From positions 1-5,705 of the forward strand of contig VBFF01000065.1 in NCBI GenBank assembly GCA_005889285.1: 5,705 bases of DNA. The letters are read 5' to 3'. Made by a program: the position numbers and the translations under genes. Below are positions 1 through 5,705 of the stretch, one piece after another; positions within the stretch are counted from its first letter, which is position 1; each line of letters begins with the position of its first letter. The stretch is from Chloroflexota bacterium. GTDB lineage: Bacteria; Chloroflexota; Dormibacteria; CF-121. Below the pieces are notes generated by a model. The model did not search any database. It saw only the letters and a program-made list of their open reading frames with translations, and was not told where the DNA came from.

Positions 1-1276
1 CGTAGACGAACTTCGGGTGGATATTGCTGATGTCGGTGTCGACCCAGCAGATCAGGTCGCCCTTGAGGGTGAAGAGGCTTTTCCAGAGCGCTTCACCCTT
101 CCCCTGAAAGGCGCCATAGCGGGGAAGGATCTCGCTGTGCTGTACCACGGTGACGCCGGCACGTTCCGCGATGGCGGCCGTGCGGTCGGTCGATCCAGAG
201 TCGACGACCACGATCTCATCGATCAGCGGGACCCGCTCCATCAGTGCGGACTTGAAAGTGCGAATCACCTTGCCGATGGTGGTCTGCTCATTCAGCGTCG
301 GCAGCCCGAGACTGATGGTGACGCCCTGGCGCTGCTTGAGGTCGACCAACCGCCGCAGGTCACCAAACTCGCGGCTGTGGAAGGTGTTCTCGGCGAACCA
401 GCGATCCACGCGCTCGGCCGCCGCCGCGCGGCTCTCGACCCGGAAGGGCCGATCAGGATCTTTGATCTCCGACACCGGGGCCCCGCTCTTGACCACCATC
501 ACGCTGCCCGGCAGCCGCCGCAGCAGGCGGCCGACCGGCGCACCCAGCACCATCGGCCGGTGCATCAGGCTCATGGTGGCGCCGAGTACCACGAGCTGGT
601 GCTGCGCGGCCTCGCGCACGATCGCCTCCCGCACCGCCGTGGAGAAGAGGGTGATCCGCCGGACCGGCACGTCGACAGCGCTCGACAGCTTGAGGAAGGC
701 CTTTTCCTCCCGCGCCCGCGACTCGTCCGAGATTCGGGGGTTGAAGATGTGCAGGACGCAGAGCTCGGCCCCGTGTTGCTTGCACACGGTGCTCGCCAAT
801 CGCAAGGCCAGCTCGGCGCTCGGGCCGCCTCGAACCGGCACGAGCACGCTCCTGATGGGCGCCGCGTCCGGCCGGACCAGGGCGACATCGCAGGGCGGGT
901 CGGCGAGCAGGTCCTCGACGGCGTTGACCCACAGCCCGTCGCGCCCCTGGCCATCGCCGGCTTCGAGCACCAGCAGGTTGGTGTCGGTTTCCAGCGCGGC
1001 CTCCCGGATACCCTGGGCGGCGACGTGGGCGATCCGCACCTGGCCGCGGAGCTCCCCGGGACCGCGCTCCGCGTAGCGCGTGATGCGCGAGAGCAGGGCG
1101 CGGTAGGCGCGCGCCACCTCCACGCCTTCGCTGAGCGGGCGTTCCGGCGCCATCTCGATGACGCCGAGCAAGGTGCCGCGCGAGTCTTCCGCGTTGAGGA
1201 ACGGAGAGACGGCCTTGAGCAGTGGCCCGGTTCGCGCGGGGTTGGTCGTCGGGATCAGGACGCGGTAGTGGCTCAC
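1..1276 (-). CDS. gpgS: Tandem universal stress protein domains fused to glucosyl-3-phosphoglycerate synthase-like glycosyltransferase (3' end outside window)
   Basis: I translated this frame by hand: 425 residues without a stop, starting at GTG (1276-1274) and leaving the window in frame. Residues about 3-136 and 141-264 each read as a universal stress protein (USP) fold; the second opens with IRSVLVPVRGG and ends LPGSVMVVK. After a linker with RWFAENTFHSREF (292-304), a GT-A glycosyltransferase begins at about 318. It has PTLNE (326-330), DSGSTD (359-364), GKGEALW (392-398) and a DxD metal/nucleotide site D413-T-D415. This order and wording match glucosyl-3-phosphoglycerate synthase (GpgS, GT81), which transfers glucose from a nucleotide sugar to 3-phosphoglycerate, the first step to glucosylglycerate. 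Expected acceptor-site residues and the C-terminus lie outside the window. No signal peptide or membrane segment is visible, so it should be cytosolic. Its start overlaps the upstream GT4 stop (GTGA), implying translational coupling. A typical GpgS is about 300-330 residues without USP domains, so the roughly 315-residue N-terminal extension is unusual. A related GT2 enzyme with another acceptor is possible. Confidence 0.87.
   Translation of the reverse strand, partial: MSHYRVLIPTTNPARTGPLLKAVSPFLNAEDSRGTLLGVIEMAPERPLSEGVEVARAYRALLSRITRYAERGPGELRGQVRIAHVAAQGIREAALETDTNLLVLEAGDGQGRDGLWVNAVEDLLADPPCDVALVRPDAAPIRSVLVPVRGGPSAELALRLASTVCKQHGAELCVLHIFNPRISDESRAREEKAFLKLSSAVDVPVRRITLFSTAVREAIVREAAQHQLVVLGATMSLMHRPMVLGAPVGRLLRRLPGSVMVVKSGAPVSEIKDPDRPFRVESRAAAAERVDRWFAENTFHSREFGDLRRLVDLKQRQGVTISLGLPTLNEQTTIGKVIRTFKSALMERVPLIDEIVVVDSGSTDRTAAIAERAGVTVVQHSEILPRYGAFQGKGEALWKSLFTLKGDLICWVDTDISNIHPKFVY
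1273..1276 (-). other. GTGA stop/start overlap joining the GT4 gene and the USP-GpgS gene
   Basis: On the minus strand the four bases GTGA hold the GTG start of the USP-GpgS gene and the TGA stop of the GT4 gene. Overlaps of this kind usually mean termination-reinitiation coupling within one transcript. No Shine-Dalgarno precedes the GTG (the upstream bases on this strand are CCTGCTGACGTCCAGCTC), which supports coupling and fixes the choice of start. Confidence 0.8.
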
Positions 1277-2523
1277 GAGCTGGACGTCAGCAGGGGTTCG
1301 AGGCGCTCGGCCACGATGTGGTCCCAGGAAAGCGCGTTGATGACGTGATGGCGCGCGCGGGCGGCCGGCGACTCGATGGCGCGAAGCACGGCGGCGGTGA
1401 ATGCCGTCGATCCCTGCGAGGCCGGCACAAAGGTCGCCCCCTCGGGCGCGACTTCGCGAAAGGCAGGCAGGTCGGTGCAGACGACCGGCACGCGGAAGAG
1501 CGCGGCTTCCGCCAGCGGCAGCCCGAATCCCTCACTCGCGCTCGGTAGAACCACGACATCACTCAGCATATAAAGGTCGCTCAGCGTTGCCGCATCGACG
1601 GCATGCTCGCTCGACGCCGGAGACCGCTCTTCGAAGAGGAAGCGGACCGATTGCTCGAGCCGGAGCCGCCCCGTCAGCCGTTTGAGCTCGGCGACGTACT
1701 CGAGCGAACGCGGATTGTGCGGACCGGGTGGACCGGTGATCAGGAGCTGGACACTCCGACCGGAATCGCGGACACCGGCGGCGGCCTCGATGGCCCACTC
1801 GAGGTTCTTTCGTTTGGTGATCCGGACCGGCGCCAGCAGCACGATGTCGGTGCTGAGCAAGCCGAAGCGGTCATTGAGCTCGGTGGCGCGCGCACCGAGC
1901 TTGAGCAGCGCACCCGCGTCGATACCGTTGGGGATGACGTGGGATGCGTCGAGCGCGGCGCCCGTCAGCTGGTTCCACTCCTCCAGTCGCTGCGCCGAGA
2001 CGAAGATCGACGTGATGCGCGGATGCTGGCGGCGGAGCAGATCCCAGGGTTCGCCCTCGTGCATCCAGGGCCGGTAGAGCGGGTTCAACCAACTGATGTC
2101 GTGCACCCACGAGATGATGCGCGCGCGATGGCCGTCGGCCAGCCGCCACAGCGCCGCGGTCAGCGGCAGGTTGAAGTGGAGCGCCAGCGCGTTGTGGACG
2201 ATCAACACGTCGAGCTCGTCCAGCTCCGTGGTGAGGCGCTGGACGATCTCCGCGCGCAGGGTCGCGAATTCCGACGGAATGTCGCCGCGGTCGAGGGCCT
2301 CGCGGACGGCGCTCACCGCGGTCTCGCGGGAGTCCAGCTCCGGGATGATGGCGAGCTTCGCCGCGTGCGGCTCTGGCAATGGACCGCCACGACCGCTCAG
2401 GATGGTCACACGGTAGCCGCGGGCCCCGAGGCGCACGGCCTGCTCGTGCAGGATGGTTTCGACGCCACCAATGATCGGCGGGCTGGTGTAATGCAGCAGC
2501 CCGACGCGCGCCCGAGTGGTCAC
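1273..2523 (-). CDS. Family GT4 glycosyltransferase (GT-B fold), acceptor unknown
   Basis: A 416-residue retaining glycosyltransferase of the GT-B fold. The N-terminal Rossmann domain has the acceptor-side glycine motif IIGGVE (17-22) and VHDISW (140-145, with H141 where GT4 enzymes often carry a catalytic-site histidine). The C-terminal domain begins near IPNGID (197-202), has RITKRKN (234-240) with the Arg/Lys pair that binds the donor diphosphate, and the EX7E motif E331-GFGLPLA-E339. No membrane segment or signal peptide is seen. I start it at GTG 2523-2521, because VTTRARVGLLHYTSPP fits the family N-terminus. The frame stays open to 2643, but those 40 extra residues are low-complexity Ser/Thr/Arg/Pro lying inside the upstream hydrolase gene. 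No Shine-Dalgarno precedes the GTG; with 7 bases from the previous stop, coupling is likely. The donor and acceptor cannot be read from sequence. Next to GpgS, plausible roles are mannosylglucosylglycerate synthase or a glucan-elongating enzyme; an envelope-polysaccharide role is also possible. Confidence 0.9.
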   Translation of the reverse strand: MTTRARVGLLHYTSPPIIGGVETILHEQAVRLGARGYRVTILSGRGGPLPEPHAAKLAIIPELDSRETAVSAVREALDRGDIPSEFATLRAEIVQRLTTELDELDVLIVHNALALHFNLPLTAALWRLADGHRARIISWVHDISWLNPLYRPWMHEGEPWDLLRRQHPRITSIFVSAQRLEEWNQLTGAALDASHVIPNGIDAGALLKLGARATELNDRFGLLSTDIVLLAPVRITKRKNLEWAIEAAAGVRDSGRSVQLLITGPPGPHNPRSLEYVAELKRLTGRLRLEQSVRFLFEERSPASSEHAVDAATLSDLYMLSDVVVLPSASEGFGLPLAEAALFRVPVVCTDLPAFREVAPEGATFVPASQGSTAFTAAVLRAIESPAARARHHVINALSWDHIVAERLEPLLTSSS

Positions 2524-2530
2524 GGGCCGG

Positions 2531-4663
2531 CTAGGTGATGAGGGGCGGTTCGTCGAGGATGACGGCCAGGTCGTCGGGCTTCTCGAGGACGTCGACGTGC
2601 GGCCGGCCGCCGTTGTAATCCACCTTGAACGAGAGCTTGCCATTCCCGAGCCGCATCCCGCGGATCTCGACGCTGCGCGCCTGCCCGAACGGAATCGGGT
2701 TGAGGTAGACGCGGCCGGCCGTGGTATCCGGCACGATGCCGAGCGCGGTCTGCATCAAGTGGAAGGCCGCGCCCGCGCCCCACGCCTGCGGATTGCAGGA
2801 CACCAGGTACTCGGCAGGACCGTTGTTGTAATGGCTGTCGCGCCGAAATCCGCAGAACAACTCTGGCAGGCGATGGTCCGGCATGCGGATGCCGGCTTCC
2901 ATGATGCCTTCGATCACGCGGCCGGCCGCCTCCGCGTGGCGGTAGCGGCGCAGGCCCGCGACCGCGATCGAGTTATCGTGAGGCCAGATCGTGCCATTGT
3001 GATAACTCATCGGGTTGTAGTGCGGTGAGTCGGCGGAGAGTGTACGGATCCCCCAGCCGGAGAACATATCGGGCGCCATCAGCCGGTCGCGCAGAATCTC
3101 GGCGCGCTCGGGATCGATGATGCCGGCCCACAGGCCGTGCGCCGGGTTCGAGGTGATCGAGGGGATCTGCACCTTCTGCCGGTCGAGTCCTTGCGCATAG
3201 AACTGCTCGTGGTCGAGCCAGAACGCGAGCTCGAAGCGACGCCGGAGCTCGGCCGCCTCCCGCGCCAGCCGCTCGGCCATCACCGGTTGGCCGAGGCGCT
3301 CGAGGATGCGGCTCAGCCCCACCTTCGCCTGGTAGACGTATCCCTGCACCTCGACGAGCGCCACCGGCAGCTCCACCGGGCGTCCATCCGGATAGAGCAG
3401 CGAGTCATGCGAGTCCTTCCAACCCTGGTTGCGCACGCCGCCGCTGGCGCGCTCGGCGTACTCGACGAAGCCGTCATGGTCTGAATCGCCGTAGAGGTCG
3501 ACCCACTTGAGCGCGCCCAGGATGGCCGGCAGCAGCTCGACGAACAGATCCTGGTCGTTGAGCCAGTCCATCATTTCGACCGCGGCGACGAGGAAGAGCG
3601 GGGTGCTGTCGACGGATCCGTAGTAGGGCGTGTGCGGGATCAGCTTGAGGTTGGCGAGCTCGCCGTAGCGCGCCTCGTGCAGGATTTTGCCGGGTTCCTC
3701 CTCGCGCGAAGGGTCGACCTTCCCCCCCTGATGCTGCGCGAGGTAGCGCAGGGTTCCTCGGGCGACCTCCGGGTTGAGCATGAGCGTCTGGATGGAGGCG
3801 ATCAGCGCATCGCGTCCAAAGGGCGCCGAGAACCAGGGGATGCCCGCCATGGGGAAGAGCCCGCTGTCGAACTCCTCCAGCAGGATTCGCAAGTCCATCT
3901 GGCTGCGGCGCAGCAGGCCGCGGTCGAGGAAGGCATTGTCGGTGCCGATCCGGGTCGTGTTGTCGTGCCAGCGGCGATAGGACCCTTGCAGCGCCTGCAG
4001 CGCGTCGTCGTAGAGGTAACTCAGTATCGGCTCGTTCTCGCCGATCACCGGGATGACATCGATCACGAGCGTGACCGTGTCTTTCGAGTTGAGGTGGAAA
4101 TGCCAGTTCAGCGTTCCGTCCTGATTGAGCGTGCGCGGCTCCGGCTTGACGACGACCTCGGTTCGGCGCAGGAGGCCATCCTGGCCGTCATAGGTGAAGG
4201 TCAGGCCCCGGGTGTTGACCTCGGTCGGTCGAATCGTGCCGAGGGTCTGCACCTTGTAGCCACGCACATCGAACATGTCGCGAAAGTCGCCCTCGATCCG
4301 CAGCGAGCATTCGATCTCGACGGGTTCGGTGCCGCAGTTCTGGATGCCGATGCGCTCGTGTAGGCCGCCGTAGATGAAGCGACTCCGACGAATGCTCAGG
4401 CTTTGCTGCGGGATCCGGCGCTTGCCCTCGTCGAGGAGCAACACCGGGTTGACCATCTGAAAGGTGGCGACATAGCTCTCATCGACAGAAGCGGATAGCA
4501 GGATCGGCTGTAACCGATTGAGCCGGAACTCATAGGTGGAGACGAAGCGGGTATCAGAAAAGTAGAGGCCGAGCCCCTTACTGTTTCCGGCCGGGATGTC
4601 GCCCATCTCATCGGACACCATCATGATCCGGTTCTCTTTCAGAACCACCCGGCCGTCCGACAC
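2531..4663 (-). CDS. Amylo-alpha-1,6-glucosidase-like glycoside hydrolase (glycogen debranching N-terminal domain protein)
   Basis: A complete 710-residue protein. Residues about 5-210 form the beta-rich N-terminal domain of the GDE_N_bis type: the opening LKENRIMMVSDEMGDIPAG and GLYFSDTRFVSTYEFRLN (31-48) are characteristic. Residues about 235-640 form an (alpha/alpha)6-barrel hydrolase with GIPWFSAPFGRDAL (274-287), HTPYYGSVDSTPLF (344-357), DSDHDGFVEY (393-402), GWKDSHDS (414-421), YHNGTIWPHDNS (554-565) and PQAWGAGAA (625-633). A small beta domain (about 645-710) closes it. By analogy with GH15/GH63-clan inverting enzymes, acids such as D285, E401, D417 or D420 may be catalytic; this is inference. 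No signal peptide, so an intracellular alpha-glucan or glycoside is the likely substrate. The start is GTG 4663-4661: an in-frame TGA lies eight codons upstream and no other start codon lies between. A TATAAT hexamer 7 bases upstream predicts a leaderless message. It is first in the operon. Family names imply debranching, but a glucosylglycerate-type substrate is equally possible here. Confidence 0.9.
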   Translation of the reverse strand: MSDGRVVLKENRIMMVSDEMGDIPAGNSKGLGLYFSDTRFVSTYEFRLNRLQPILLSASVDESYVATFQMVNPVLLLDEGKRRIPQQSLSIRRSRFIYGGLHERIGIQNCGTEPVEIECSLRIEGDFRDMFDVRGYKVQTLGTIRPTEVNTRGLTFTYDGQDGLLRRTEVVVKPEPRTLNQDGTLNWHFHLNSKDTVTLVIDVIPVIGENEPILSYLYDDALQALQGSYRRWHDNTTRIGTDNAFLDRGLLRRSQMDLRILLEEFDSGLFPMAGIPWFSAPFGRDALIASIQTLMLNPEVARGTLRYLAQHQGGKVDPSREEEPGKILHEARYGELANLKLIPHTPYYGSVDSTPLFLVAAVEMMDWLNDQDLFVELLPAILGALKWVDLYGDSDHDGFVEYAERASGGVRNQGWKDSHDSLLYPDGRPVELPVALVEVQGYVYQAKVGLSRILERLGQPVMAERLAREAAELRRRFELAFWLDHEQFYAQGLDRQKVQIPSITSNPAHGLWAGIIDPERAEILRDRLMAPDMFSGWGIRTLSADSPHYNPMSYHNGTIWPHDNSIAVAGLRRYRHAEAAGRVIEGIMEAGIRMPDHRLPELFCGFRRDSHYNNGPAEYLVSCNPQAWGAGAAFHLMQTALGIVPDTTAGRVYLNPIPFGQARSVEIRGMRLGNGKLSFKVDYNGGRPHVDVLEKPDDLAVILDEPPLIT

Positions 4664-4742: not shown

Positions 4743-5705
4743 ATGGCGCTGCCCTTAGTGGCGATCGTCGGCCGCCCGAACGTGGGCAAGTCCGCGCTGT
4801 TCAACCGGATTCTGGGCGAGCGCCGCGCCATCGTCGATCCGATGGCCGGGCTGACCCGCGACCGGCTGTACGCCGAGAGCGAGTGGCAAGGGCGCAAGTT
4901 CGTCATTGTCGATACCGCGGGACTGGTCCTGGGGAAGGACCGCGACGAGGTTCCGGCTCAGCGCGAGCTCCGCCGGCGGATGGAGGAGCAGAGCCGGCTG
5001 GCCATCGAGGAGGCCGACCTGGTTTTGTTTGTGCTCGATGTGCGCGAGGGCTTGACCGCCGTTGATCGCGACATCGCCGAGCTGCTGCGTAGGTCGCGAA
5101 CCCCGGTGCTGGTGGTGGCGAACAAGGCCGATGGGCGCGGCCGCGAGGTGCTGGCGAGCGAGTTCTATGAGCTGGGGATTGGCGACCCCTGGGTGATCTC
5201 TGCCCTGCATGGGACGGGAAGCGGCGACCTGCTGGATGCGGTGGTGGAGAAGCTGCCGCCGCCGAAGCCGGAGGTGGTCGATGACAAGCTGGCCGGCCGG
5301 GTCGCGATTCTGGGGCGACCGAATGTGGGGAAGTCGTCGCTGGTCAATGCGCTGATCGGCGACGCGCGAAGCCTGGTGACGGCGGTGCCGGGAACGACGC
5401 GCGACCCGGTCGACACGACGGTGACGTTTCAAGGCAAGCGCGTGCTGCTGGTCGATACCGCCGGCATCCGTCGGCCCGGCCTGACCCGAGGCGTGGAACA
5501 GTACTCCCTCTTGCGCGGGCTGCGCGCGATGGAACGGGCCGATATCGGGATCGTTGTCATCGATGCCAGGGAGGGACTGACGGCGCAGGACGCGCACATC
5601 GCCGGGTATGTCGTTGACGCGGGCCGCGGACTGGTGCTGGTGCTGAACAAATGGGATCTTCTGACGCCGGAGGAAAAGGAGGAGAAGGTCTGGCGGAAGA
5701 AGGTC
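4743..5705 (+). CDS. der: Ribosome biogenesis GTPase Der (EngA), 3' end outside window
   Basis: The first 321 residues of Der, a cytosolic tandem GTPase required for 50S subunit maturation. G domain 1 shows G1 GRPNVGKS (10-17), the GLTRD switch (36-40), G3 DTAGL (57-61) and G4 NKAD (127-130), with SALHG (153-157) as G5. After a linker (171-184), G domain 2 repeats the set: GRPNVGKSSL (191-200), PGTTRD (216-221), DTAGIRRPG (238-246) and NKWD (302-305). The stretch VEQYSLLRGLRAMERAD (251-267) is a Der signature. The C-terminal KH-like domain (roughly the last 120 residues of a usual 440-490 residue protein) lies beyond the window. ATG 4743 places the P-loop at the usual distance from the N-terminus; no ATG, GTG or TTG start precedes it in frame nearby, and no Shine-Dalgarno is visible. 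It is transcribed divergently from the hydrolase operon. Between DTAGL and MEEQ, domain 1 is about 8 residues longer than in E. coli Der. Confidence 0.97.
   Translation, partial: MALPLVAIVGRPNVGKSALFNRILGERRAIVDPMAGLTRDRLYAESEWQGRKFVIVDTAGLVLGKDRDEVPAQRELRRRMEEQSRLAIEEADLVLFVLDVREGLTAVDRDIAELLRRSRTPVLVVANKADGRGREVLASEFYELGIGDPWVISALHGTGSGDLLDAVVEKLPPPKPEVVDDKLAGRVAILGRPNVGKSSLVNALIGDARSLVTAVPGTTRDPVDTTVTFQGKRVLLVDTAGIRRPGLTRGVEQYSLLRGLRAMERADIGIVVIDAREGLTAQDAHIAGYVVDAGRGLVLVLNKWDLLTPEEKEEKVWRKKV

What the first reader, a model, noticed from the sequence alone, without database searches (positions are those of the whole stretch)
1..1276. Tandem universal stress protein module fused to a GpgS-type glycosyltransferase
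The sequence shows one uninterrupted frame with two USP-like domains (about residues 3-136 and 141-264) ahead of a GpgS-like catalytic domain carrying PTLNE, DSGSTD, GKGEALW and D413-T-D415. Characterised GpgS enzymes (for example from mycobacteria) are, to my knowledge, stand-alone and lack USP domains. Glucosylglycerate is a solute made under salt or nitrogen stress, so a covalently attached nucleotide-binding or stress-sensing domain would be a direct way to gate the committed step. The fusion is seen; the regulatory role is inferred.
Basis: partly seen in the sequence, partly recalled or inferred. Interest (0 to 1): 0.7.

Follow-up and report, generated by a model that had tools for sequence, protein, structure and literature searches.

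The report
Osmolyte enzyme fused to stress-protein regulator
This gene joins a predicted enzyme for the protective sugar compound glucosylglycerate to a pair of universal-stress-protein domains in one protein; the same fusion is on nearly every copy examined in its bacterial phylum, and the stress-protein pair likely acts as a built-in control of how much protectant is made.

Summary
The fusion is real and lies in one open frame; the contig ends at residue 425 of about 616. A full-length 94% relative passes the curated GpgS model. In a survey of the window's phylum, 77 of 78 newly fetched GpgS-like loci carry the USP pair in frame; the other is a contig-end fragment. The same query finds mostly unfused GpgS among the best Actinomycetota loci. 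A tree suggests one fusion and two losses. The operon runs GH, GT4, USP-GpgS, with a 4-base GTGA overlap.

USP2 keeps a near-invariant pocket (R149-G150-G151, G232) but lacks the canonical ATP motif and the KdpD c-di-AMP motif. The predicted tandem superposes best on regulatory domains of cation-chloride cotransporters.

Two natural experiments suggest the USP pair has its own job. In one branch the GT has lost catalytic residues while the USP half stays conserved (GT4 is missing beside it in the one locus seen). Elsewhere a free descendant of the pair sits directly before a trehalose-phosphate-synthase-type gene (9 of 13 loci).

Best reading: a portable control module for compatible-solute synthases. 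Regulation, ligand and direction of control are inferred.

The parts
2..1276 (-). USP-USP-GpgS fusion gene (3' end cut by contig end; 425 of about 616 residues)
866..1276 (-). USP domain 1 (residues 1-137); pocket loops not conserved
   Evidence: fold of the relative P0002; conservation
488..856 (-). USP domain 2 (residues 141-263)
   Evidence: Pfam Usp
821..832 (-). R149-G150-G151-P152 loop after strand 1 of USP2 (99, 97, 95, 91% in 78 sequences)
581..583 (-). G232, invariant, at the start of the beta4-alpha4 loop of USP2
2..421 (-). GpgS-type GT-A domain, N-terminal part (residues 286-425)
   Evidence: fold of the relative P0002
287..301 (-). PTLNE
185..202 (-). DSGSTD
83..103 (-). GKGEALW
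32..40 (-). D413-T-D415 (DxD)
1273..1276 (-). GTGA overlap: stop of GT4, start of the fusion
1273..2523 (-). GT4 glycosyltransferase (416 aa from GTG 2523), weak match to mannosylglucosylglycerate synthase
2531..4663 (-). GDE_N_bis / MGH1-like glycoside hydrolase, 7 bases upstream of GT4

Best explanation
The gene encodes a predicted glucosyl-3-phosphoglycerate synthase (GpgS) with two universal-stress-protein domains fused to its N-terminus, and this USP pair likely works as a built-in regulator that tunes glucosylglycerate synthesis. Shown here by sequence: the fusion, its retention in the phylum survey, one well-supported clade of fused genes, the operon, a conserved pocket in USP2, a branch whose GT lost catalytic residues while its USP half stayed conserved, and free relatives of the pair in front of a GT20 gene. 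Inferred: that the free forms descend from the fusion, that USP2 binds a phosphorylated ligand through R149-G150-G151 and G232 (KdpD- or KCC-like, without the canonical ATP motif), and that binding changes GpgS activity. The ligand and the direction of control are unknown.
Against: No biochemistry. The canonical ATP motif and the KdpD c-di-AMP motif are nearly absent. The USP halves are poorly conserved overall (mean pairwise identity 31% against 65% for the GT in 72 loci). Two lineages (L212, L234) lack the USP pair and keep a GT, so it is dispensable there. The free-tandem/GT20 association sits in three genera of one family and may be one event; three of 13 free tandems show no GT20 in the stretch held. 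No interface between USP and GT was measured.
Confidence: 0.6

Rival explanations
1. The USP pair is a structural scaffold: it sets oligomeric state or stability of GpgS and binds no signal.
For: Canonical nucleotide motifs are nearly absent; USP sequences drift fast in active lineages; GpgS of M. tuberculosis is described as a dimer in solution (PMC2581804, passages).
Against: A near-invariant pocket in USP2 only; the USP half is the better conserved half where the GT has decayed; the pair also exists without a GT.
Confidence: 0.22
2. The USP pair is a localisation or docking part that holds GpgS with GT4, the glycoside hydrolase or a transporter.
For: Tight operon with GT4 (GTGA overlap); GT4 directly upstream in 41 of 68 loci with more than 1 kb upstream; an exchanger or EamA gene downstream in the three loci looked at.
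Against: 27 of those 68 loci lack GT4 directly upstream; the conserved positions cluster at a ligand-pocket site; most free tandems sit by GT20 instead.
Confidence: 0.12
3. The GT makes another product, such as mannosyl-3-phosphoglycerate, so the module does not control glucosylglycerate.
Against: NCBIfam GpgS cut-off passed by P0002; identity to GpgS structures 43-46%, to MpgS 38-39%; the R. xylanophilus enzyme is itself called MpgS/GpgS in PMC2581804 (passage).
Confidence: 0.15
4. The fusion is a neutral historical accident kept by descent.
For: One origin explains its spread; the USP half appears to have been lost twice.
Against: 77 of 78 newly fetched loci retain it, near-invariant pocket residues, and purifying selection on free tandems (dN/dS 0.11-0.46 in six pairs).
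Confidence: 0.05

Closest known systems
Mycobacterial GpgS and Rubrobacter xylanophilus MpgS/GpgS (GT81 in the table of PMC2581804)
   Different: Solved chains are 326-387 aa and match only the GT half; here two USP domains precede it.
Tandem universal stress proteins (TB31.7 = 2jax, UspE/YdaA)
   Same: Two USP domains in tandem; 2jax and 3cis are the best sequence profile matches of the N-terminal half (2jax E 1.7e-15).
   Different: Fused to an enzyme; canonical ATP motif lost; Arg-Gly-Gly in the loop after strand 1.
C-terminal regulatory domain of cation-chloride cotransporters (KCC1, NKCC1, prokaryotic CCC 3g40)
   Different: Transporter, not enzyme; sequence signal only E 0.16; Foldseek's own ranking puts stand-alone tandem USPs ahead, with no cotransporter in its 50 rows.
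KdpD USP domain binding c-di-AMP
   Same: A USP regulator inside an osmoregulatory protein, without Walker motif but with the first Gly kept (PMC8214093, passages).
   Different: Its binding motif is in 1 of 152 fusions.
TeaD, regulatory USP subunit of the ectoine transporter TeaABC
   Same: USP attached to a compatible-solute system (PMC8280820 passage).
   Different: A separate protein acting on uptake, not a fused tandem on synthesis.

Membership tests
GpgS (glucosyl-3-phosphoglycerate synthase) | Passes the curated GpgS profile | tested here: met
   P0002 390 bits vs 262; the window copy is truncated, 153.6 bits; the decayed P0038 fails at 202
GpgS (glucosyl-3-phosphoglycerate synthase) | GT-A fold with NDP-sugar and metal residues (LNE, GKG, DxD) | tested here: met
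   mostly lost in the decayed branch
GpgS (glucosyl-3-phosphoglycerate synthase) | Transfers glucose from NDP-glucose to 3-phosphoglycerate | not testable with these tools
   -
Universal stress protein (Usp) | Pfam Usp above cut-off and alpha/beta USP fold | tested here: met
   45.9 bits vs 24 in the window; secondary structure of the model of P0002; 73 of 74 halves match at E<=1
ATP-binding USP (UspFG type) | G-2x-G-9x-G-[ST] motif | tested here: not met
   3 of 152 full-length fusions, none in USP2; ATP binding without the motif is known for some USPs (passages)
KdpD-type c-di-AMP-binding USP | [AGC]xSxSxxN motif | tested here: not met
   1 of 152, although a diadenylate cyclase is in 30 of 31 related genomes
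Cation-chloride cotransporter C-terminal domain | Same tandem arrangement | tested here: met
Cation-chloride cotransporter C-terminal domain | Sequence homology | tested here: inconclusive
   3g40 at E 0.16
Cation-chloride cotransporter C-terminal domain | Attached to a transporter | tested here: not met
   attached to a glycosyltransferase
Mannosylglucosylglycerate pathway (GT4 neighbour) | GT4 passes the MGG synthase profile | tested here: not met
   window GT4 56.6 bits, two L094 GT4 genes 224 and 84 bits, cut-off 640

The most novel reading that the evidence does not exclude
A portable osmolyte-control module. A tandem USP built like the regulatory domain of animal cation-chloride cotransporters was fused once to GpgS, senses a phosphorylated signal through an Arg-Gly-Gly pocket, and gates solute synthesis. 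It then outlived its enzyme: on a dead GpgS in one lineage, and as a free protein translationally coupled to a trehalose-phosphate-synthase-type enzyme in another. Cells would thus control ion transport and solute synthesis with the same fold.
Probability: 0.42. Interest if true: 0.85.

Novelty: new variant of a known kind. Interest (0 to 1): 0.68.

Why it matters
How bacteria switch compatible-solute synthesis on quickly, before transcription, is in my view still largely open. A regulator covalently attached to the committed enzyme, with a defined pocket, two apparent natural losses, a dead-enzyme branch and a free form beside another solute-type synthase, would make the question directly testable. 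It would also tie enzyme control to the USP-like regulatory fold of cell-volume transporters.

Full report
WHAT IS IN THE WINDOW. The window is a whole 5,705-base contig of a metagenome-assembled genome; the relatives found are titled mostly Chloroflexi bacterium, some Ca. Dormibacteraeota or Dormiibacter. On the minus strand three genes follow each other: a GDE_N_bis/MGH1-like glycoside hydrolase (4663-2531), a GT4 glycosyltransferase (2523-1273) and the fusion (1276-2, cut by the contig end). GH and GT4 are 7 bases apart; GT4 and the fusion overlap in GTGA. The GTPase gene der runs the other way (4743-5705).

HOW WIDESPREAD. A GT-only query found a match in 87 of 301 genomes of the window's phylum, 91 matches in all. 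I fetched 78 of these; 77 carry the USP tandem in the same frame, and one (L199) ends at a contig end. Of the other 13, eleven were fusions seen before, and two are short fragments (G001:C267, G359:C663). Over all GT loci examined it is 158 of 159, with some genomes counted twice. The tandem model was built from the family itself, so I checked independently: Pfam Usp matches 73 of 74 N-terminal halves at E<=1. A control for stand-alone enzymes: in the phylum of Ca. Oleimmundimicrobium (Actinomycetota) 149 of 296 genomes match; of the best 30 loci 10 are fused, 19 have no USP in frame, and one (L226) starts at a contig start and cannot be judged. Around L086 (titled Deltaproteobacteria) 6 of 148 genomes match; L086's own is fused, the other five have frames of 329-359 aa.

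ONE FUSION. In a 64-row GT tree all 42 fused rows plus two unfused ones (L212, L234) form one clade at 100/99; forcing the fused rows alone together is rejected (p-AU 6e-5). The parsimonious reading is one fusion and two losses of the USP half. In L234 a GT4 gene runs right up to the USP-less GT. A quick 78-row tree agrees.

NEIGHBOURS. Among 79 loci (the best 80 stretches of 210), 66 have at least one neighbour of sugar-glycerate type in the stretch held: GT4 (47), GDE/MGH1-like GH (22), sucrose-phosphorylase-like GH13 (12), glycerate kinase (10), further MGH1-like GH (7 and 4), histidine phosphatase (6), MPGP-type HAD phosphatase (4). GT4 lies directly upstream in 41 of the 68 loci with more than 1 kb upstream. 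Families were named from one or two representatives, and no background count was made. GH13_18, the sucrose-phosphorylase subfamily, holds a glucosylglycerol phosphorylase, and a glucosylglycerate phosphorylase is cited with it (PMC10873239, passages). The exact product of each neighbour is not established.

NATURAL EXPERIMENT 2: THE MODULE GOES FREE. In the class, 13 loci in 110 genomes match L268's USP tandem (E<=1e-15) in frames under 400 aa. In 10 of these 13 genomes the free tandem is the best match to the window protein, so no GpgS-grade gene was seen (the MAGs are incomplete); G061, G023 and G031 also have the fusion. All nine studied in 9-15 kb stretches keep the RGG loop, and on a quick USP tree they sit with Dormibacteria-type fusions (98). 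The GT tree, rooted on unfused enzymes, places Dormibacteria fusions inside the fused clade, so the free forms most likely derive from the fusion. Nine of 13 are followed at once by a GT20 gene (OtsA-like: L268's scores 304 bits, under the cut-off of 565), in L268 with a GTGA overlap; one (G051) by TreT and then GT20; three (G061, G023, G031) by neither in the stretch held. GT20 matches number 1-3 in 105 of the 110 genomes and none in 5. These lineages are related, so this may be one event. Free tandems are under purifying selection (dN/dS 0.11-0.46 in six pairs).

CONCLUSION. That it regulates, and by which ligand, is inferred.

Noticed in passing
L084:6157-7971 and L068:3-1118: A second, divergent GpgS-like ORF lies directly upstream of the fusion (GpgS model 50 and 44 bits, below cut-off).
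   Followed up: partly
L200 (G353:C1:190900-193400): A second fused copy with lost GT motifs in a genome that also has an intact fusion (L184): apparently another decay of the enzyme half.
   Followed up: partly
L048:7239-8294: An EamA-type transporter gene follows the fusion in this same-family locus; the same ORF family is downstream in six other loci.
   Followed up: no
L110:9774-10991 and L094:9973-11100: A sodium/hydrogen exchanger (L110) or a sodium/calcium exchanger (L094) gene follows the fusion in Anaerolineales loci.
   Followed up: no
L212 and L234: GpgS genes inside the fused clade that lack the USP half: apparent secondary losses, useful as natural deletion controls.
   Followed up: partly
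L274:5698-6984: A TreT-like trehalose synthase sits between a free USP tandem and a GT20 gene, near a histidine kinase gene.
   Followed up: partly
G013:C68:9585-10775 (L018, L049): A fusion with about 30 residues of USP2 missing, perhaps an assembly fault.
   Followed up: no
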